Below, in pieces: positions 2 through 9,176 of a stretch of DNA of 9,973 nucleotides. Both the position numbers and the translations under genes were made by a program. The stretch spans positions 1-9,973 of the forward strand of contig JALSIF010000291.1 of assembly GCA_026981635.1 (NCBI GenBank), given 5' to 3'. Under the pieces are notes generated by a model. That model saw only the letters and a program-made list of their open reading frames with translations, was not told the DNA's origin and did no database searches. The DNA is from a bacterium (GTDB lineage Bacteria > 4484-113 > JALSIF01). Position 1 is the stretch's first letter. Each line of letters opens with the position of its first letter.

Positions 2-1306
2 GGTCTGGTACTGGACGAGGAGGAGATCCGCGATCGGGCTCTGCTGGAAGAGGTTGAGCAGGCCCCCATCGTCAAGCTGGTGGAGACCATCCTAAACGGG
101 GCGGTTGACTACCGCGCCTCCGACATTCACCTGGAGCCCAAGCCCGACCGGATGGATGTGCGCTACCGCATTGACGGCATGCTCCACAAAGTGCTCACCG
201 TACCCAAGAACGCAGTGCGGGCGGTGACTGCACGCCTAAAGATTCTCGCCCACGTGGACACCAGTGAGCGTAGAAAGCCCCAGGACGGACGCATCCGGGC
301 AATCCTCAGGGACAAGGAGTGGGACATCCGCTTCTCCACCCTGCCTACGGTGCACGGGGAGAAGATCGTGATGCGACTGCTTGACCCGGAGAGCTCCAAG
401 GTGGAGATCACCGACCTGGGCTTTGACGAGGAGGAGCTTGAGGTCTATGAGGAGATCATCAGCCACCCCCACGGCATTCTGCTGATCACCGGGCCCACCG
501 GTTCAGGTAAGTCCACCACCCTGATCGCCACCCTCAGAAAGCTGGCCCGGGAAGAGGTCAACGTGACCACCATTGAGGACCCGGTGGAATATCTTTACGA
601 GGGGATCAACCAGGTGCAGGTCAACCCCAAGGTGGGGCTCACCTTCGCCACTGGGCTCCGCTCCATCGTCCGTCAGGACCCCGACATCATCATGGTGGGT
701 GAGATTCGTGACCCAGAGACGGCCGACCTGGCGGTGCAGGCGGCCCTCACCGGACACCTGGTCTTTTCCACCCTGCACACCAACGACGCCCCCGGTGCCA
801 TTCCGCGTCTCAACAACCTGGGGGTGCCCATCTATCTCATTGACGCCTCGGTGCTGGGGGTGATGGCCCAACGGCTAGTGAGAAAGCTCTGTCCCCACTG
901 CAAGCGGGCCAAGGAGCCGGATGAGCTGGAGTGGGAGATCATCCGCAAGACCATCCCCAACCTGGATAAGCCGCCCCTCATCTACGAGGCGGTGGGGTGC
1001 AAGTTCTGCAACCACTTCGGCTACACGGGCCGGACCGGTATCTTTGAGATCTTCCGCATGACCCCCAAGGTGAGGGAGCTCATCAAGAAGAACACCTCCA
1101 TCCACGCCATCAAGCGGGTCGCCCGCGAGGAGGGGATGAAGACCCTGTTTGAGTCGGGGATGAAGAAGGTACTACGGGGCATCACCTCGCTGGAGGAACT
1201 GCTCCGGGTCGCCCGGCCCGACTGGGAGGAGGAGGTCGTGGAGGGCGAGCCGGTCATTGCCAAGCTGGAGGAGGCGGCGCCCAAGCTGGCCGAGGTGGAA
1301 GCCTAG
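2..1306 (+). CDS. pilB: Type IV pilus extension ATPase PilB (5' partial)
   Basis: This is the hexameric cytoplasmic ATPase of the GspE/PilB family that drives pilin polymerisation. The frame is open from base 2, and the upstream residues (QAPIVKLVETIL) belong to the family, so the GTG at 80 is not the true start and the N-terminal domain is missing. Counting from base 2: the ASDIHLEP motif near residue 40; Walker A GPTGSGKST at 164-172; then the Asp box TIEDPVEY, Walker B DIIMVGEIRDPETA and His box TGHLVFSTLHT. The zinc-binding tetracysteine typical of PilB/GspE is at C297/C300 and C333/C336, and PilT lacks it. The protein ends in an acidic Glu/Ala-rich tail. Next comes pilT, 95 bases downstream. 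GspE of a type II secretion system is the alternative, but the adjacent pilT argues for a pilus. Confidence 0.93.
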   Translation, partial: GLVLDEEEIRDRALLEEVEQAPIVKLVETILNGAVDYRASDIHLEPKPDRMDVRYRIDGMLHKVLTVPKNAVRAVTARLKILAHVDTSERRKPQDGRIRAILRDKEWDIRFSTLPTVHGEKIVMRLLDPESSKVEITDLGFDEEELEVYEEIISHPHGILLITGPTGSGKSTTLIATLRKLAREEVNVTTIEDPVEYLYEGINQVQVNPKVGLTFATGLRSIVRQDPDIIMVGEIRDPETADLAVQAALTGHLVFSTLHTNDAPGAIPRLNNLGVPIYLIDASVLGVMAQRLVRKLCPHCKRAKEPDELEWEIIRKTIPNLDKPPLIYEAVGCKFCNHFGYTGRTGIFEIFRMTPKVRELIKKNTSIHAIKRVAREEGMKTLFESGMKKVLRGITSLEELLRVARPDWEEEVVEGEPVIAKLEEAAPKLAEVEA

Positions 1307-1401: not shown

Positions 1402-2559
1402 ATGGACTATACGATCCTTGACCTTTTGGTTCAGCTCGTGGAGCACGGGGCCTCGGACCTGCACATCACCGCTGGCGTGCCACCCTCGTTGAGGATTCAC
1501 GGCCACCTGGTCCGGCTGGACTATCCGCCCCTCACCCCGGAGGACACCCGTGCCCTGGCCTACTCCCTGATCCGCGAGGACCAGCGCAAGAAGTTTGAGA
1601 TTGAGCGCGAGCTGGACTTCGGCTACTCCCAGAAGGGAATCGGCCGTTTCCGCTGCAACCTGATGTGGCAGCGCGACTCGGTCGCCCTGGTGATGCGGGC
1701 CATCAACGAGCGTATCCCCACCATGGAGGAACTGCTCATCCCGCCGGTGATGAAGGAGGTGATCATGCTGCCGCGCGGGCTGGTGCTGGTCACCGGACCC
1801 ACCGGCTCGGGTAAGTCCACCTCACTTGCGGCGATGATCAACGTGATCAACGAGACCAAGGACCTGCACATCGTCACCCTGGAAGACCCCATTGAGTATG
1901 TCCACCAGCACAAGAAGTGCAACGTCAACCAGCGCGAGGTGGGGCGCGACACGCTGAGCTTTGCCGAGGCCCTGAAGCGGGTGCTGAGGGCCGACCCGGA
2001 TGTGATCCTGGTGGGTGAGATGCGCGATCTTGAGACCATCTCCACCGCCATCACCGCGGCAGAGACCGGTCACCTGGTCTTTGCCACCCTGCACACCAAC
2101 AACGCCCCGCTTACCATTGACCGGATCATTGACGTCTTCCCCCAGGGCCAGCAGGACCAGATCCGAGCCCAGCTGGCCAACTCCCTGCAGTGTATCATGA
2201 GCCAGCAGCTGCTTCCCCTTGCCGACGGCGGCGGTCGGGTGGCCGCCTTTGAGGTGATGCTTAATATCCCCGCCATCCGCAACCTGATCCGCGAGCGCAA
2301 GGAGTTTCAGATTCACTCCACCATGATGACCCATACCCACCTGGGCATGATGACCATGGACCAGTGTCTGAGGGACCGCTACCTGGACGGGCTCATCACC
2401 CTGGAGGTGGCCATGGCCCACGCCAATAACGTGGGCAACCTGCAGCGGCTGATTGCGGCGGCCACCGCCGGCGAGGGGATGGAGGAGCGGCGCCGTCCGC
2501 GCAAGGGTGGTCCCGGCGAGGGGGGAGGCTTCCTTGAAGGCTCCTCCATCGGGGTATAA
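1402..2559 (+). CDS. pilT: Type IV pilus retraction ATPase PilT
   Basis: PilT is the hexameric cytoplasmic motor that depolymerises pilin into the membrane and powers twitching, surface sensing and DNA uptake. The protein has 385 residues, slightly longer than most PilT. It opens with the typical PilT PAS-like domain (SDLHITAGVPP). Walker A GPTGSGKST starts at residue 132, followed by the Asp box TLEDPIEY, Walker B DVILVGEMRD and His box TGHLVFATLHT. The PilT-specific AIRNLIRE motif, needed for retraction in studied homologues, is intact at 291-298. The tetracysteine of PilB is absent, as expected. The last 25 residues are an unusual Arg/Gly-rich tail after the conserved domain. The ATG is set by AGGAGG at 1386-1391, 10 bases upstream. 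pilC follows after 61 bases. Confidence 0.95.
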   Translation: MDYTILDLLVQLVEHGASDLHITAGVPPSLRIHGHLVRLDYPPLTPEDTRALAYSLIREDQRKKFEIERELDFGYSQKGIGRFRCNLMWQRDSVALVMRAINERIPTMEELLIPPVMKEVIMLPRGLVLVTGPTGSGKSTSLAAMINVINETKDLHIVTLEDPIEYVHQHKKCNVNQREVGRDTLSFAEALKRVLRADPDVILVGEMRDLETISTAITAAETGHLVFATLHTNNAPLTIDRIIDVFPQGQQDQIRAQLANSLQCIMSQQLLPLADGGGRVAAFEVMLNIPAIRNLIRERKEFQIHSTMMTHTHLGMMTMDQCLRDRYLDGLITLEVAMAHANNVGNLQRLIAAATAGEGMEERRRPRKGGPGEGGGFLEGSSIGV

Positions 2560-2620: not shown

Positions 2621-3868
2621 ATGAAAACCTTCATCTATACAGCCAGGGACCCGCAGGGCAAGCTCATCCGCCAGACGGTGCAGGCTGACAACCCCAACAC
2701 GGTGGTTGAGGCCCTGCGCAAGGAGGGCTTCTTCGTCGTCTCCATCCGCGAGCGGCGCCGGCCGTTTAACCCCTTCATCCTCTGGGAGCGCCTGTGGCGC
2801 ATCGGGCTTAAGCAGCTAACCATCTTCAGCCGGCAGTTTTCTCTGCTGCTCAACGCCGGCCTCACCCTGTCGGAGGCGCTGGACACCATTGAGGAGCAGA
2901 CCCCGAGTGGCCACTTCCAGGAGATCATCCACCAGGTAAAGATTGACATCCAGGAGGGGATGACCCTCACCCAGGCCATGAAGCGCCACCGCAAGGCCTT
3001 TTCCGACTTCTTCGTCTCCATGGTCCACGCCGGTGAGATTGGTGGTGCGCTGGACATCATCCTGGAGCGGGTGGCGGTCTTCTACGAGAAGGAGCTTGAG
3101 CTCCGGCGCAAGGTGATCAGCGCCCTGGTCTATCCGGCGGTGGTGGTCTCCTTCGCCTTCATCATCACCATGTTCATGCTGGTCTACATCGTGCCCCAGT
3201 TTGCCGCCTTCTATGAGGAGTTCTCCGAGGGAGAGGCCAGGCTGCCTGAGCTTACCCAGCGGCTGCTTGACCTTTCAACCTGGATGCTCACCCCCTTCAT
3301 GAACATCCCCTGGCTGCCCAACTGGCTGGCGGTGATCATCGGGATGGTCCTCTTCCTGATCATCTTCTGGAAGTTCAGGAACTCCCACTGGGGCCACATC
3401 ATCTTTGACCCCATCGTGCTCCGCATCCCCATCTTTGGTCCCCTCAACCGGAAGGTGGCAATCACCCGCTTCACCCGCACCTTCGGCACCCTGAACCAGT
3501 CGGGCGTGCCCATTCTTGAGGCGCTGGAGGTGGCCAAGCAGACGGCCAACAACTATGTGATTCGGCGGGCCATTGACTACACGGCCGACCGCATCCGGGA
3601 GGGGGAGACCATCCACGGTCCCATGAAGCGCACCCGCGTCTTCCCGCCCATCGTCACCAACCTGATTTCGGTGGGCGAGGAGGCGGGGAACCTGGAGGAG
3701 ATCCTGTTTAAGCTCTCCGACTACTACGACGCGGAGATTGATGCCACGGTGAGGGCGCTGGCCAGTATCATTGAGCCCATCCTCATCGTCATCATCGGAG
3801 GCGTGGTGGGAACCATCGTAATCGCCCTCTACCTTCCCATCTTCAACCTGGTTAACGTAATACGCTAG
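2621..3868 (+). CDS. pilC: Type IV pilus inner-membrane platform protein PilC
   Basis: PilC (GspF/T2SF family) is the membrane platform that couples the PilB and PilT motors to the pilus base. The 415-residue length is normal for the family. It starts with the usual short beta-rich N-terminus (FIYTARDPQGKL). Two T2SF domains follow, about 65-188 and 275-402, each with the family signature: GEIGG at 138-142 and GEEAGNLEE at 352-360. Hydrophobic membrane segments are at about 166-194, 234-251 and 384-408, and the last few residues return to the membrane face. The ATG is preceded by GGGGTGA (2607-2613). A 260-base gap with a promoter follows, so pilC is probably the last gene of the motor/platform transcript. 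GspF is the only realistic alternative. Confidence 0.95.
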   Translation: MKTFIYTARDPQGKLIRQTVQADNPNTVVEALRKEGFFVVSIRERRRPFNPFILWERLWRIGLKQLTIFSRQFSLLLNAGLTLSEALDTIEEQTPSGHFQEIIHQVKIDIQEGMTLTQAMKRHRKAFSDFFVSMVHAGEIGGALDIILERVAVFYEKELELRRKVISALVYPAVVVSFAFIITMFMLVYIVPQFAAFYEEFSEGEARLPELTQRLLDLSTWMLTPFMNIPWLPNWLAVIIGMVLFLIIFWKFRNSHWGHIIFDPIVLRIPIFGPLNRKVAITRFTRTFGTLNQSGVPILEALEVAKQTANNYVIRRAIDYTADRIREGETIHGPMKRTRVFPPIVTNLISVGEEAGNLEEILFKLSDYYDAEIDATVRALASIIEPILIVIIGGVVGTIVIALYLPIFNLVNVIR

Positions 3869-3982: not shown

Positions 3983-4010
3983 TTGAATATTTTTCGAATG
4001 TGGGTATAAT
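3983..4010 (+). promoter_or_regulatory. Promoter of major pilin gene
   Basis: A TTGAAT -35 box (3983-3988) and a perfect TATAAT -10 box (4005-4010) are 16 bases apart. The -10 is preceded by GGG as in the boxes before pilT and pilC. The surrounding 3969-4000 is locally AT-rich against a GC-rich background. Transcription would start near 4017 and give a leader of about 110 bases. The rest of the pilC-pilin gap (3869-3982) is C-rich and holds no gene or convincing terminator that I can see. Confidence 0.75.
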
Positions 4011-4129: not shown

Positions 4130-5299
4130 ATGAGGCGAGGATTTACGCTCATTGAGCTGCTCGTCGTCATCGTGATCATCGGTATCCTCGCGGCCATCGC
4201 CCTTCCCAACTACATCAAGGTGAAGGACAAGGCCAAGGAGGCCGAGGTCAAGGCCAACATGCACAACATCCAGCTCACCGTTGAGCGGTTCGGGGTGGAC
4301 AACGACGGAACCTACCCGCAGTACCTGATCGGTGGTGACTCGAGGCTGGCCGACATCTCCCAGAACGCCGTTGGGCAGGAGAGCATCGGCATCTTCACTA
4401 ACATTCGGCCGGCCCAGAACACCATCGCCTACTCCGACGCTCTGCTGAGGGGTGGGTACACCTCCAGCTACCCGAAGAACCCCTTCGCCAAGAACGGTAC
4501 TGCCATCTACCAGTACCAGGTTGACGCCAACGACCGCCTGCGCATCAACGCCGAGGGAAGTGTCGGCACGCCGGAGACCAACGGCAACCCGCTGGGCCTC
4601 CGCTTCGGTGCGGACGGCACCATCATGGGTCAGGTGCTGGCTGACTTCCGCTTCCCCTTCTTCAAGTTCCGCGACCCCGCCACCGGCAACGTGAGCGCGG
4701 TCAGAAGCTACGCCTGGATCGGGTTTGAGATGTACGACCTGTGGCTGGGCAACCAGCCGCGCGTGGTCTACCTGCCGGGTGAGTTCTTCTACAAGAGCGC
4801 TGGACCCATCCTGGCTACCCGTACCCGGGTGCAGCAGAGCGAGCGGCAGCCCATCCAGCCGGTGGAGATTGACCAGTACATCATGGGCGGCTACGGCTCG
4901 GTGCGCACCAAGGGCTTTGAGATCCTGGGCCGTGAGTTCCCCATCATCGTGCGGACTCAGCTGTTTACCCAGAACAACTCTGAGGGCAGCGGCCTGTTTG
5001 CTCTGAGCGACACGCCCACCGAGACCATTGAGAAGCCGGTCAAGGGGCCCAACGCTCCGGGTGCCGGTCCTGGCGGTGGCGGCATCGGTGGTCCCGGCTC
5101 CGCACTGGGCCCGGGCGAGGCCGCCCTGTGGCACTGGACCCGTTCGCTGGACAGCGACGACCGGCTCGGTTCGCCCTACCGTCCGCGTGGTCCGGGTGAG
5201 GTTGACCTGCTGGCCTACGGCAACCCCGACCTGGGTCTGCGTGACGGCATCGTCATCGCGCTCAACGCTGGTGAGGACGTCAAGATCCGCAACCAGTAG
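4130..5299 (+). CDS. Oversized major type IV prepilin
   Basis: This is a pilus fibre subunit. The leader is MRRG, then cleavage and N-methylation at F5 (RRG|FTLIE), with the conserved Glu at mature position 5. The hydrophobic N-terminal alpha-helix (LIELLVVIVIIGILAAIALP) anchors the subunit and builds the fibre core. At 389 residues it is more than twice a normal pilin (about 150-180). The large C-terminal region is not one I recognise. It contains YLIGG, RGGY..YPKNPF, GLRFG, MGQVLA, PIQP and LGRE blocks, a Gly/Pro-rich linker at 305-330, and a final NPDLGLRDG block (365-373). I chose ATG 4130 because it has an SD 10 bases upstream and gives a short class III leader; a GTG at 4061 would add 23 unlikely residues. 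C-ending codons for Phe and Tyr dominate, which suggests high expression. It is flanked by its own promoter and terminator. A GspG-type pseudopilin is the alternative. Confidence 0.85.
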   Translation: MRRGFTLIELLVVIVIIGILAAIALPNYIKVKDKAKEAEVKANMHNIQLTVERFGVDNDGTYPQYLIGGDSRLADISQNAVGQESIGIFTNIRPAQNTIAYSDALLRGGYTSSYPKNPFAKNGTAIYQYQVDANDRLRINAEGSVGTPETNGNPLGLRFGADGTIMGQVLADFRFPFFKFRDPATGNVSAVRSYAWIGFEMYDLWLGNQPRVVYLPGEFFYKSAGPILATRTRVQQSERQPIQPVEIDQYIMGGYGSVRTKGFEILGREFPIIVRTQLFTQNNSEGSGLFALSDTPTETIEKPVKGPNAPGAGPGGGGIGGPGSALGPGEAALWHWTRSLDSDDRLGSPYRPRGPGEVDLLAYGNPDLGLRDGIVIALNAGEDVKIRNQ

Positions 5300-5324
5300 G
5301 AGCCGAGCAGACGACGAGCACCAC

Positions 5325-5359
5325 GGGGGGCTCCCCTGCGGGGGAGCCCCCTCTCTTTC
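5325..5359 (+). terminator. Strong intrinsic terminator after major pilin
   Basis: A perfect 11-bp GC-rich stem pairs 5326-5336 with 5341-5351 across a TGCG tetraloop. A pyrimidine tract, TCTCTTTC, follows at 5352-5359. It begins 25 bases after the pilin stop. It should end most pilin transcripts and so separate the expression of the second prepilin from the first. Confidence 0.9.
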
Positions 5360-5428
5360 ACCTGGGAGGCTACCCTCACTCCCCATGGGCTAGGCTAGAC
5401 TGGTGGGAGGATGCCAGAGGGACTAATG

Positions 5429-6394
5429 ATGGGCAGAGCAGGTTTCTCCAGGCTTGAGCTCGCGGTGGCGGCGTCTCTGATTCTCCTTCTTGGTGGAGTT
5501 GCCCTGCCTACGGTAAGCGCTACCGACCGCTATGCCCAGAAGCAGGAACTGATCACCAAGGGGGCCGAGATCCAGGACGCCATTGAGCGCTATTATCTGG
5601 ACCACAAGCCGGGATTTCCAACCTATCTCATCGGGGGGGAGGCGGCGGTGGATGAGAGGGGAAATCCCCGCCCGGAGACGGCCTCCGACCCGCTGATCAG
5701 GGGGGGCTACCTGGTGCGCTACCCCAAAAACCCCTTCCTGAATCAGGGGAAGGGCTTTCTCTACTGCCAGAAGCTTAAGGACGACCCGCTTAGGGAGGGG
5801 GATGTTGGAAGCGAGGGGAGCTATCCCCGCGGGCTCAGGTTTGGCAGGAGCGGCATGCTGATGGGCCAGGTGCTGGCCGAGCACCGCTACCCAAGCTTTC
5901 TGGTTGAGATAGACGGGGAGAGCAAAAAGCTAAGCTCCTTTGCCAAGTTCAGCTATGAGCAGTTTGACACCTGGGAGGGAGAGCGGGGGCGTAACCGGGA
6001 GGGGTTTTATGTGGGCAGCTTTGCCTACAAGTCGGGGGGGCCGGCGGCAAAGATCGTCTCTCGCCTCAGGCAAAACCCGCGGGTGCCCCTGGGGCCCATC
6101 CAGCCCGAGCACTATATCCTACTGATCTTTGGCTACCTTGATGACGAGGGTTCAGACCTGCTGGGTCGTGAGCCAACCATCGGTGAGGGGGGACCGCCAA
6201 GCTGGACCCGGGGCTCCATGACCAAGCCGGAGGGATCGCCCTTCCTGAAATGGGATGAACTGGGTGACTTCTTTGGTTGGCCCAACCCCAACGGCATCTC
6301 TGACGGGGTTATCTGGATGGCCTACGGGATGGATGAGGAGCGCAACCGCCGTTGGCGGGAGAAGATGAGGGAAAAGCTGTGGGAGGATTATTAG
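5429..6394 (+). CDS. Second large prepilin, paralogue of the major pilin
   Basis: This is a prepilin-like protein with leader MGRAG, then cleavage before FSRLE. The Glu at mature +5 and a hydrophobic helix (LELAVAASLILLLGGVALP) follow. It aligns with the upstream pilin along its length: YLIGG (66-70), RGGY..YPKNPF (91-103), GLRFG (135-139), MGQVLA (145-150), YKSGGP (200-205), PIQP (223-226), LGRE (245-248) and NPNGISDG (286-293). The Gly-rich linker is missing and the C-terminus is a charged Glu/Arg/Lys tail. ATG 5429 has AGAGGG (5416-5421) at 7 bases. An ATG at 5411 is also in frame, but its GGGAGG touches the start codon. More T-ending codons and AGG arginines than in the first pilin suggest lower expression. 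It lies after a terminator with no clear promoter. It is probably a minor pilin; an adhesin or tip role is inference. Confidence 0.82.
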   Translation: MGRAGFSRLELAVAASLILLLGGVALPTVSATDRYAQKQELITKGAEIQDAIERYYLDHKPGFPTYLIGGEAAVDERGNPRPETASDPLIRGGYLVRYPKNPFLNQGKGFLYCQKLKDDPLREGDVGSEGSYPRGLRFGRSGMLMGQVLAEHRYPSFLVEIDGESKKLSSFAKFSYEQFDTWEGERGRNREGFYVGSFAYKSGGPAAKIVSRLRQNPRVPLGPIQPEHYILLIFGYLDDEGSDLLGREPTIGEGGPPSWTRGSMTKPEGSPFLKWDELGDFFGWPNPNGISDGVIWMAYGMDEERNRRWREKMREKLWEDY

Positions 6395-6434: not shown

Positions 6435-6449
6435 TAAAATCCCAGCGTG
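6435..6449 (+). promoter_or_regulatory. Candidate leaderless promoter -10 box at phnC
   Basis: TAAAAT (6435-6440) ends six bases before the phnC GTG (6447-6449), the spacing seen in leaderless bacterial mRNAs where transcription begins at the start codon. No Shine-Dalgarno sequence precedes this GTG. An in-frame TAA at 6435-6437 rules out any further upstream start. A -35 hexamer is not evident. Confidence 0.4.
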
Positions 6450-7211
6450 TCAGTCCTGAAGCTTTCTGAGATCATCCATACCTTCCCCGATGGAACCACT
6501 GCCCTGCGGGGGGTTGACCTTTCAGTTGGGCCGGGGGAGGTGGTGGCCATTATCGGCCCCTCCGGAGCGGGCAAGTCCACCCTCCTTCGGGTGATCAACG
6601 GGCTGGTGATCCCCAGCTCGGGAGAGGTTGAGGTGCTGGGGGAGAGGCCGCGGGGAGAGCGGGCCTGGCGGCGAGTGAGGCGGCGCATCGGGATGGTCTT
6701 CCAGAGCTTTAACCTGATCCCCCACACCAGCGTGCTGATGAATGTCTTGGCAGGTGCCCTGGGCCGGATCCCCACCTGGCGCTCCCTGATAGTGGCCTTT
6801 ACCCGGGAGGAGCGGGAGGGGGCGATGGCCGCCCTGGAGAGAGTGGGCCTTGGGGACAAGGCCCACAAGCGGGTGGAGGAGCTTTCCGGGGGTGAGCGCC
6901 AGCGGGTGGCCCTGGCCCGGGTGCTCATGCAGGAACCGGAGATGGTGCTGGCCGACGAGCCGGTGAGCAACCTTGACCCGGTAATCGCCCGGAGCGTCCT
7001 TGACCACCTGGTTCGCATCTGCCGGGAACAGGGGATCACCACGGTGATGAACCTGCACGCGGTGGACCTGGCCAGAAGCTACGCAGGGCGCATCGTTGGA
7101 CTTAGGGATGGCAGGGTGGTATTTGAGGGAAGCCCCGCCGAGCTGGGGCAGGCGGAGCTTAGGGAGATCTACGGAGAGAGCTACCGGGAGGTGGGGGTTG
7201 GCCAGGGGTAA
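6447..7211 (+). CDS. phnC: Phosphonate-type ABC transporter ATPase PhnC
   Basis: This is the cytoplasmic ATP-hydrolysing subunit of a PhnCDE-type importer, a family that takes up phosphonates, phosphite or related phosphorus compounds. The 254 residues are a typical length. Walker A GPSGAGKST is at 37-45, the Q-loop FQSFNLI has Q86, the ABC signature LSGGERQRVALARVL starts at 146, Walker B MVLADEP is at 166-172, and the switch histidine is H204. The stretch HAVDLARSYAGRIVGLRDG after the switch histidine is characteristic of PhnC rather than PstB or amino-acid importers. The GTG start is forced by an upstream in-frame stop and has no SD. The gene overlaps phnE by 14 bases, so the two are co-expressed. 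The actual substrate cannot be read from sequence. Confidence 0.9.
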   Translation: MSVLKLSEIIHTFPDGTTALRGVDLSVGPGEVVAIIGPSGAGKSTLLRVINGLVIPSSGEVEVLGERPRGERAWRRVRRRIGMVFQSFNLIPHTSVLMNVLAGALGRIPTWRSLIVAFTREEREGAMAALERVGLGDKAHKRVEELSGGERQRVALARVLMQEPEMVLADEPVSNLDPVIARSVLDHLVRICREQGITTVMNLHAVDLARSYAGRIVGLRDGRVVFEGSPAELGQAELREIYGESYREVGVGQG

Positions 7212-8022
7212 GCTGAGCACCGCCCTCAGCCGTGCACTGTGGCTGGGGCTAGGCGTCCTGGGGCTGGCCCTCATCTGGGCCTCGCTGGTGAGGACCGAGT
7301 TTCTCCCCCAGCGGGTGCTGGGGATCGGGCCCAAGGGGCAGGAGGCCTTCGTGAGGCTTATCTCCGCCCTCGCCCATCCTGATCTGACCGTCCTTCCGGA
7401 GATCGCCGACGGGATGTGGGAGTCCATCGCCATGGGCCTGATCGGCACCCTGCTGGCGGTGGTGGCCTCGCTTCTGACCTGCTTTCTTGCCGCGCGCAAC
7501 CTCACTTTTGGCACCCCCCAGGGGAAGGCGGTCTACCTGGTGGTGCGCACGGTCTACAACATCGTCCGCGCCTTCCCCCCCATCGTCTTGGCGATGCTCT
7601 TTGTGGTGCTGTGGGGGGTGGGACCGCTGGCCGGGGTGATGGCGCTGGCGGTCCACTCGGTTGGCATGCTGGGCAAACTCTTTGCCGAGGCCATTGAGGG
7701 GGCCGACCCGGGTCCCATTGAGGCGGTGCGTTCAACCGGGGCAAGCCCCATCCAGGTGGTGGCCTATGGGATCCTTCCCCAAGTGCTTCCCCACTTCGTG
7801 GCCTACTCGGTCTACCGGTGGGACATAAACATCCGCATGTCCATCGTGCTCGGCGTGGTGGGGGCGGGGGGGATCGGCAACCTGCTCCAGCAGTACTTCG
7901 GCTACCTCAAGTATGAGCAGATCTCCACCACCTTCCTGGCCATCCTGGTGGTGGTGACGGCACTGGACCTGGCCTCGGGCTGGATCCGGGAGCGGCTGGG
8001 GGTGGTGAGCGCCCCGGTCTAG
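7198..8022 (+). CDS. phnE: Phosphonate-type ABC transporter permease PhnE
   Basis: This is the membrane channel subunit that partners PhnC, with 274 residues, normal for PhnE. Hydrophobic segments lie at about 13-31, 75-98, 125-145, 147-163, 214-224 and 244-261. The EAA loop that docks the ATPase is clear (FAEAIEGADPGPIEAVRSTG onward, about 162-198, ending LPQVLP). It is followed by the PhnE hallmark IVLGVVGAGGIG (216-227). I chose TTG 7198 because GGGAGGTG (7186-7193) gives a good SD 6 bases upstream and the overlap with phnC suits translational coupling. The longer open frame from 7096 would add 34 residues that only shadow phnC. No PhnD binding-protein gene is adjacent. The stop overlaps the convergent exchanger gene. 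Confidence 0.9.
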   Translation: MARGKLSTALSRALWLGLGVLGLALIWASLVRTEFLPQRVLGIGPKGQEAFVRLISALAHPDLTVLPEIADGMWESIAMGLIGTLLAVVASLLTCFLAARNLTFGTPQGKAVYLVVRTVYNIVRAFPPIVLAMLFVVLWGVGPLAGVMALAVHSVGMLGKLFAEAIEGADPGPIEAVRSTGASPIQVVAYGILPQVLPHFVAYSVYRWDINIRMSIVLGVVGAGGIGNLLQQYFGYLKYEQISTTFLAILVVVTALDLASGWIRERLGVVSAPV

Positions 8023-9176
8023 CCCTTGGGGGTGTGGGTGGGAACGCCCAGGGGATTGAGGATCACTATCGCCAGGTAGACCAGGTAGAGCAGACCGCCA
8101 ATCATCAGCAGGCGGGGATCCACGTCGCGGTTCTTGCGGATGTTTAGGTAGACGAGAAGGCCACCCAGCAGGGCCAGCAGAACCGAGACGGTCTCAAAGG
8201 ATCGGGGATCAAAGGTCCACTCGGTAAGGAGCATTCCAATGGCCACCGGGATGGTGGACTGGAAGACCATGGCGCCGCTCATGTTGCCCAGGGCGAGGGT
8301 GTCCTTGCCCTCCCTCACCCAGATAACTGAGTTGAACTTCTCAGGTAGTTCTGTGGCGACTGGGATGATAAGAAAGGAAAGAACTAAGGGGCTGATTCCG
8401 AGTTGCTGACTTAGGTCTGTAATAACCCCTACGATTAGATATGCCCCTGCTAGAATCATACCCAGAGCGAAGATAAGCTGTAGAATGATGTAGCGGCGAC
8501 GAGGCACCCCTTTATCCAACAAGATATCCCAGCCCTGTTTCAGAGCGGGGCAAATTCGGTAAACAAGAGAGACAAAATGTAGTTGATCTAAGCCCTCTTG
8601 TTCTGTATGAATTCTACCAGACTTGACTATTCTTCTTACATAGATTACATACGCAAACACAAGAAGAATTGCTAGGACAATTTTGATTATATGTAATATT
8701 GCAGACATCTGCTGAGGACTGTTAGAATACTGTGTTAGATACCAGCTGGCAAGACCAGCAATTACCCCTAGTGGATAAGTAATGAGGAAAAACCTAAAAT
8801 CTTTTTCAGCCACAGTTATATCCACGTGAAAAGGCCGAGACCTACCTAAAGCAAGGGAAATAAAAAATACTGAGCCCACAACAAAAACTCCCAATGTCGC
8901 TAGCATAAAAGGAGCTCCCAAGATAGCCCCAATTCCGATGTGTTCAGCGGCCTGATGGGCTTCATCAGTTCCCATCAAGGAAATGACGATGGCCACTATG
9001 GTTATCAGGGTCTCGGGAAGCGCTGTCCCTACCGCTGCCAAGACACTGCCCACTGCCCCGGTGGAGAGGTTTAGGCGGCTGCCCAACCACTCAACCGCGT
9101 TGGTAAAGACCTCAGCGGCCAACACAAGCAGGGCGAGGATGGCCACGAGCAGGGTGACGTCCAAGAAGATCTTCAT
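8019..9176 (-). CDS. CaCA-family sodium/calcium-type cation antiporter
   Basis: This is a polytopic membrane antiporter of the Ca2+:cation antiporter superfamily, with 385 residues and about ten hydrophobic segments. The two inverted alpha-repeats are visible: AVGTALPE (48-55) with GIGAILGAPF (81-90), and PVATELPE (272-279) with GNMSGAMVFQ (297-306). The paired acidic residues E55 and E279 correspond to the central ion-binding glutamates of the family. The usual GSN tripeptides are replaced by GAP and GAM, so this is a divergent branch and the transported ions are uncertain. A cytoplasmic loop lies between (about 182-225). The ATG has an AGGTG 10 bases upstream (9187-9191 on the complementary strand). 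Base composition is mosaic: bases from about 8340 to 8950 are AT-rich while both ends are GC-rich. The gene converges on phnE, with no terminator between them. Confidence 0.85.
   Translation of the reverse strand: MKIFLDVTLLVAILALLVLAAEVFTNAVEWLGSRLNLSTGAVGSVLAAVGTALPETLITIVAIVISLMGTDEAHQAAEHIGIGAILGAPFMLATLGVFVVGSVFFISLALGRSRPFHVDITVAEKDFRFFLITYPLGVIAGLASWYLTQYSNSPQQMSAILHIIKIVLAILLVFAYVIYVRRIVKSGRIHTEQEGLDQLHFVSLVYRICPALKQGWDILLDKGVPRRRYIILQLIFALGMILAGAYLIVGVITDLSQQLGISPLVLSFLIIPVATELPEKFNSVIWVREGKDTLALGNMSGAMVFQSTIPVAIGMLLTEWTFDPRSFETVSVLLALLGGLLVYLNIRKNRDVDPRLLMIGGLLYLVYLAIVILNPLGVPTHTPKG

What the first reader, a model, noticed from the sequence alone, without database searches (positions are those of the whole stretch)
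4130..6394. Tandem pair of oversized, paralogous type IV pilins with a shared unrecognised C-terminal domain
Both proteins have canonical prepilin leaders (G|F, Glu at +5), but their mature forms are about 385 and 316 residues, not about 150. They share at least seven blocks in the same order (YLIGG, RGGY..YPKNPF, GLRFG, MGQVLA, YKS.GP, PIQP, LGRE, NP...DG), so the whole large ectodomain was duplicated. I do not recognise the domain. It may define a pilin class with a decorated fibre surface. The pairing of a highly expressed and a weakly expressed copy suggests a major subunit plus a specialised minor one.
Basis: partly seen in the sequence, partly recalled or inferred. Interest (0 to 1): 0.6.

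Follow-up and report, generated by a model that had tools for sequence, protein, structure and literature searches.

The report
Unnamed family of giant pilins
Next to the genes for a pilus motor, this uncultured bacterium (candidate phylum UBP7) carries two related pilus-subunit genes more than twice the usual size, and they belong to an unnamed pilin family that so far turns up only in three obscure candidate phyla, where it has been copied up to 16 times per genome.

Summary
Window genes A (4130-5299) and B (5411-6394) are paralogous prepilin-like proteins (35% identity, E 3e-43). The ectodomain of B alone matches a profile made without it at E 7.5e-48, and no shuffle matched. No Pfam or NCBIfam model covers the ectodomain. 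A 78-sequence AlphaFold2 model of A is confident (pLDDT 83, pTM 0.84): a 51-residue pilin helix plus one large globular domain. No solved structure matches significantly; among the few weak structural alignments, pilins predominate.

The pair itself is not the unit. A belongs to a family found in all ten UBP7-class genomes held and in two other small candidate phyla, with up to 16 copies per genome. In eight of ten class genomes A's ortholog directly follows pilC, the place a normal 127-170-residue pilin takes in a second pil locus. I therefore read A as the major subunit of its own PilB/PilT-driven pilus. Its mature length (385) exceeds the 297-residue maximum of a published survey of 1,955 major pilins. 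B is a fast-evolving copy seen beside pilC only here, probably a minor subunit. The truly conserved tandem pair is another branch of the family. Eleven relatives across all three phyla lack the prepilin leader. This is a new variant of a known kind.

The parts
2..1306 (+). pilB: pilus extension ATPase, 5' end cut by the contig end
   Evidence: PF00437 E 1.4e-140
1402..2559 (+). pilT: pilus retraction ATPase
   Evidence: PF00437 E 8.1e-49; PilT-like length and order, by comparison with class-mates
2621..3868 (+). pilC: inner-membrane platform protein
   Evidence: PF00482 E 9.8e-64, two stretches
3983..4010 (+). promoter-like site upstream of A (TTGAAT-16-TATAAT)
   Evidence: 10 of 12 consensus matches; consensus only
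4130..5299 (+). oversized prepilin A, 389 aa (mature 385): probable major pilin
   Evidence: PF07963 E 2.1e-8 and TIGR02532; AlphaFold2 pLDDT 82.6, pTM 0.84; pilC-adjacent in 8 of 10 class genomes
4130..4141 (+). prepilin leader MRRG of A; cleavage before Phe, Glu at +5
   Evidence: sequence
4985..5098 (+). Gly/Pro-rich low-confidence stretch of A (about residues 286-323)
   Evidence: pLDDT under 50 at 286-293 and 295-323
5325..5352 (+). 12-bp hairpin followed by TCTCTTT, probable terminator between A and B
   Evidence: -44.7 kcal/mol for the 80-nt piece, z -3.4, no shuffle as stable
5411..6394 (+). oversized prepilin-like protein B, 327 aa (322 from the ATG at 5426): paralog of A, probable minor subunit
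   Evidence: long branch 1.94 inside the UBP7 clade
5426..5443 (+). leader of B (MMGRAG), cleavage before Phe, Glu at +5, Arg at +3
   Evidence: sequence; missed by PF07963 and TIGR02532

Best explanation
A is the major subunit of a dedicated, retractable type 4 pilus made by the adjacent PilB/PilT/PilC. Prepilin peptidase cuts after Gly -1, PilC and PilB polymerise the long helices, and PilT pulls the fibre back. The subunit carries about 330 residues outside the helix instead of about 100, as one enlarged globular domain. The fibre should therefore be wider and more heavily clad than ordinary type 4 pili, and possibly stiffer, as proposed for the 208-residue Myxococcus pilin (PMC11046646). 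B is a lineage-specific, fast-evolving copy, separated by a terminator and less codon-adapted, that most likely enters the same fibre as a scarce minor or tip subunit. Shown by computation: homology, leaders, pilC linkage, family range, fold confidence. Inferred: processing, polymerisation, retraction, major/minor roles, fibre properties.
For: A has a full class III leader and a continuous helix 7-57 in a confident model. A's ortholog follows pilC in 8 of 10 class genomes: six complete genes and two cut by contig ends. In nine of the ten, a second pil locus has a 127-170-residue pilin directly after its own pilC; the sequences read show pilMNO and further genes beside it. The large pilin thus sits where a major pilin sits. 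Five intact orthologs beside pilC have mature lengths of 324-372. The structural second look gives PilA4 of Thermus (108 residues at 2.7 A, Z 4.2) and an ETEC type IVb pilin (151 residues, Z 4.4), spanning model residues 5-383. For the A/B split: terminator hairpin, codon adaptation 0.69 versus 0.54, B's long branch, B absent from the other loci.
Against: The large-pilin locus has no pilMNO or secretin beside it in G003, where the flanks were read. The window genome's only detected secretin (G000:C26) lies elsewhere, though the genome is 85% complete. Position after pilC is circumstantial. Z 4 matches are weak. Leaderless relatives show the ectodomain can have a use outside polymerised fibres. 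In G002 and G004 pilC is not followed by a large pilin.
Confidence: 0.62

Rival explanations
1. A and B are large minor pilins that work at the tip as adhesins or ligand binders, like the modular pilins PilB/PilC of Streptococcus sanguinis; the fibre itself is made of a small pilin from the second pil locus.
For: The pilins of this size described in the papers I read are minor or modular (PMC8179133). Nine of ten class genomes also encode a 127-170-residue pilin with its own pilC. Many paralogs per genome suit diversified binding roles.
Against: The large pilin has its own pilBTC and sits directly after pilC, separate from the small-pilin locus. The window genome shows no small pilin over the cut-off. 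No known binding module is found in the ectodomain.
Confidence: 0.2
2. The proteins are pseudopilins of a type II secretion-like system that drives secretion rather than a surface pilus.
For: The same genome has a gspJ/K-like cluster with three large pilin-like proteins (C181) and a long secretin gene. B matches gspG weakly over nearly the whole model (E 1.2e-4, below the cut-off). No class genome has a gspG over the cut-off.
Against: pilT, a retraction ATPase that type II systems lack, sits between pilB and pilC. Profile comparison with GspG aligns only the helix, and with the helix removed nothing aligns significantly.
Confidence: 0.1
3. The ectodomain is a portable envelope domain whose job (binding or sensing) does not depend on polymerisation; the pilin form is one of several ways to anchor it.
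For: Eleven full-length relatives in all three phyla keep the domain but lack the G/F..E leader, among them one with a zinc ribbon before the membrane helix (L025) and a tandem set of five in G007; a twelfth, more distant one carries about four membrane helices (L020).
Against: 68 of 82 full-length members keep the leader, and the leaderless ones nest among leader-bearing pilins as derived branches.
Confidence: 0.08

Closest known systems
Myxococcus xanthus PilA and other 'large major pilins' (PMC11046646)
   Same: T4a-type N-terminal helix with an enlarged globular domain in a presumed major subunit; A aligns by sequence to the helix of a 208-residue PilA major pilin chain (8tj2)
   Different: 208 residues there; surveyed major pilins span 42-297 aa. 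A is 385 aa mature, its intact orthologs beside pilC 324-372; no sequence similarity was found outside the helix
Modular pilins, e.g. PilB and PilC of Streptococcus sanguinis (PMC8179133)
   Same: pilins far above the usual size; extra mass beyond the pilin module
   Different: those carry a recognisable grafted domain and are minor subunits; here no known domain is found and the C-terminal strand appears to belong to the core
Thermus thermophilus PilA4 (6xxd) and ETEC type IVb pilins (9iuf, 3s0t)
   Same: best structural alignments of the model (Z 4.2-4.4 for the top two, covering most of PilA4)
   Different: Z is low; the model has over 200 residues of insertions and extensions
GspG major pseudopilin (TIGR01710)
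   Same: N-terminal helix; a 'GPYL..lPkDPWG'-like motif recalls GY..YPKNPF
   Different: below the curated cut-off (51 and 22 bits versus 88.85); no significant profile match outside the helix

Membership tests
Type 4 pilin (class III prepilin) | G|F cleavage site with Glu +5 and a hydrophobic segment | tested here: met
   A: PF07963 E 2.1e-8, over the cut-off. B: residues present but not recognised by the models
Type 4 pilin (class III prepilin) | about 50-residue N-terminal helix | tested here: met
   helix 7-57 in the model of A, pLDDT above 95 over most of it
Type 4 pilin (class III prepilin) | pilin beta-sheet globular domain | tested here: inconclusive
   VIA second look Z 4.2-4.4 to pilins; Foldseek no significant match
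Type 4 pilin (class III prepilin) | linked to pilus assembly genes | tested here: met
   pilB, pilT, pilC immediately upstream; conserved in 8 of 10 class genomes
Type 4 pilin (class III prepilin) | polymerises into a filament | not testable with these tools
   needs microscopy
GspG major pseudopilin | match over the curated score of TIGR01710 | tested here: not met
   51.0 (A) and 22.2 (B) against 88.85 bits; no class genome has a match at E 1e-15
Modular pilin | additional recognisable non-pilin domain | tested here: not met
   no Pfam or NCBIfam family in ectodomains of nine diverse members apart from three sub-cut-off chance-level hits
T4a major pilin | most abundant subunit of the fibre | not testable with these tools
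   inferred only from position after pilC and codon adaptation

The most novel reading that the evidence does not exclude
Three candidate phyla build a class of very thick type 4 pili from 320-390-residue major pilins. They have also turned this pilin, repeatedly, into uncleavable membrane-anchored proteins that keep the pilin head but cannot join a fibre, acting as caps, inhibitors or receptors for the fibre.
Probability: 0.25. Interest if true: 0.75.

Novelty: new variant of a known kind. Interest (0 to 1): 0.5.

Why it matters
If A is the main fibre subunit, it extends the size range of major pilins by about a third beyond the largest of 1,955 surveyed sequences (297 aa, PMC11046646) and gives a natural test of how much cladding a type 4 fibre can carry. 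The family has no Pfam or NCBIfam model beyond the helix, so its members are presumably annotated only as 'prepilin-type N-terminal domain' proteins. The leaderless relatives give material for asking how a pilin leaves the filament system.

Tried and rejected
Grafted separate domain: short C-terminal 'half' matches in G001 and G008 (L085, L086, L087) first looked like a free-standing domain, but they are genes cut by contig ends, so rejected. GspG ancestry of the ectodomain: profile comparison aligned only the helix; without the helix only a 14-column, non-significant stretch around YPKNPF aligned. First AlphaFold2 run with 14 sequences: pLDDT 49, unusable. Foldseek against PDB and viral models: no significant match. 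Profile of the ectodomain against PDB sequences: only chance-level glutamate-receptor hits. Plasmid search for A: no match. Naming the two other phyla: handles are anonymous; only one member could be tied to a record (bacterium isolate AUK107, by matching contig lengths and sequences). Papers on UBP7 pili: none found in the held library.

Full report
WHAT IS THERE. The window is a whole contig of a 1.75 Mb, 85%-complete MAG. It reads pilB (cut), pilT, pilC, pilin A, pilin B, then an ABC transporter pair (ATPase and permease), a Na/Ca exchanger on the other strand and a PEGA/carboxypeptidase-regulatory-domain protein. A (389 aa) has a full prepilin leader recognised by PF07963 and TIGR02532. 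B (327 aa, or 322 from the better-placed ATG at 5426) keeps Gly -1, Phe +1 and Glu +5 but has Arg at +3 and is missed by both models.

IS THE PARALOGY REAL. Because all pilins share the N-terminal helix, I removed it. B's ectodomain still scores E 7.5e-48 against a profile of UBP7 ectodomains built without B, and none of 2000 shuffles matches. Profiles from the other two phyla and from the distant subfamily also find it (E 7e-14 to 1e-9).

THE FAMILY. The same genome has at least six more large pilins: three in tandem on C117 that clearly belong to the family, and three in tandem on C181 beside gspJ/K-like genes that match mainly in the helix and the YPKNPF region. All ten genomes held of the class carry the family. 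Named records of the same kind include 'UBP7 HKST-UBA03' and 'Planctomycetales bacterium 4484_113'. Beyond the class, full-length members were found in two other small phyla: that of G118 (four of four genomes, up to 16 matches in G118, a few of them partial) and that of G090 (three of three). In the 385-genome search no listed match from any other genome went past profile position 173, and the two that went past position 100 (G273, G327) are ordinary pilins of under 200 residues; the weakest matches were not listed. The ectodomain has no Pfam or NCBIfam family.

STRUCTURE. With 78 sequences AlphaFold2 gives A pLDDT 82.6 and pTM 0.84: helix 7-57, then one globular domain up to about residue 383, with a disordered Gly/Pro-rich stretch at about 286-323. 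Foldseek finds no significant PDB match. The second-look aligner lists only five entries with Z 2 or more, four of them pilins: ETEC type IVb pilin (Z 4.4, 151 residues, 4.6 A), Thermus PilA4 (Z 4.2, 108 of 125 residues, 2.7 A), CofA (3.2) and a monoderm pilin (3.0). Much of these alignments is the helix and the Z values are low, so a pilin core with large insertions is favoured but not proven.

GENOMIC CONTEXT. Eight of ten class genomes have a large pilin directly after pilC: six as complete genes, two cut at contig ends. G002 and G004 have this pilC without it. Nine of the ten genomes also have a second pil locus in which a 127-170-residue pilin directly follows pilC; in the three examined, pilB and/or pilT precede it and pilMNO-like genes follow. 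The window genome shows no small pilin. Its only detected secretin is on C26; it scores with the secretins that in other class genomes lie on the contigs of the gspJ/K-like clusters, not with the PilQ-type ones. The large pilin thus takes the same place in its locus as the small major pilin in the other, which is my main reason for reading A as a major subunit. B follows A only here; in the other five loci with downstream sequence the next genes are unrelated.

PHYLOGENY. A maximum-likelihood tree of 78 members separates subfamily I (with A and B; three phylum-specific clades) from subfamily II, which splits into IIa and IIb, each with members from all three phyla. IIa and IIb genes lie side by side in G000, G002, G006, G118, G231, G360 and G381, so the ancient conserved tandem pair is this one and not A-B. 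B sits on a long branch (1.94 changes per column) inside the UBP7 clade: a fast-evolving, lineage-specific copy whose exact placement is unsure.

LEADERLESS RELATIVES. Of 82 distinct full-length members, 68 keep a [GA][FMYL][ST]..E site; three lack it only because of contig or locus ends, and eleven truly lack it while keeping a membrane helix and the same ectodomain (sequences). They occur in all three phyla: five in tandem beside one true pilin in G007 (L084), one with an N-terminal zinc ribbon (L025), and others in L016, L026, L145, L148 and L162.

EXPRESSION SIGNS. Upstream of A there is a TTGAAT-16-TATAAT site. A 12-bp hairpin followed by a T-rich run lies between A and B (5325-5352; z -3.4). 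Codon adaptation measured against this genome's ribosomal and EF genes: A 0.69, B 0.54, pilBTC 0.66-0.71.

COMPARISON. In a survey of 1,955 T4a major pilins the mature length was 141 +/- 25 aa with a maximum of 297 (PMC11046646). A is 385, and its five intact orthologs beside pilC are 324-372. Larger pilins are known, but as modular minor pilins with a grafted recognisable domain (PMC8179133). This family is therefore a new variant of a known kind: type 4 pilins with an uncatalogued, enlarged head, probably used as major subunits. Leader, helix, homology and linkage are shown by computation. Processing, polymerisation, retraction and the major/minor roles are inferred.

Noticed in passing
G000:C117 (L009:2482-5957) and L030, L069, L155, L172, L165/L168, L163/L166: A second branch of the family (IIa and IIb) is kept as an adjacent tandem pair in genomes of all three phyla; in the window genome it lies away from any pil machinery.
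   Followed up: partly
L084:6328-11561 (G007), L025, L016, L026, L145, L148, L162: Family members without the prepilin cleavage site, anchored by an ordinary membrane helix; L025 has a zinc ribbon in front, and G007 has five in tandem next to one true pilin.
   Followed up: partly
L020:1285-2463: A protein with about four membrane helices fused to a distant version of the same ectodomain.
   Followed up: no
G000:C181 (L010): Three tandem pilin-like proteins of 340-398 aa followed by gspJ-like (609 aa) and gspK-like proteins; no class genome has a gspG over the cut-off, so a large pilin may replace it.
   Followed up: no
8022-9176: Na/Ca exchanger gene of much lower G+C (about 49%) and codon adaptation (0.34) than its neighbours, probably acquired from elsewhere.
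   Followed up: no
L085, L086, L087, L189, L190: Several MAG contigs break inside large-pilin genes, as expected for near-identical repeats; copy numbers in these MAGs are probably underestimates.
   Followed up: partly
6447-8022: Downstream genes encode an ABC-transporter ATPase and permease of phosphonate-import type (my reading), transcribed in the same direction as the pilins.
   Followed up: no
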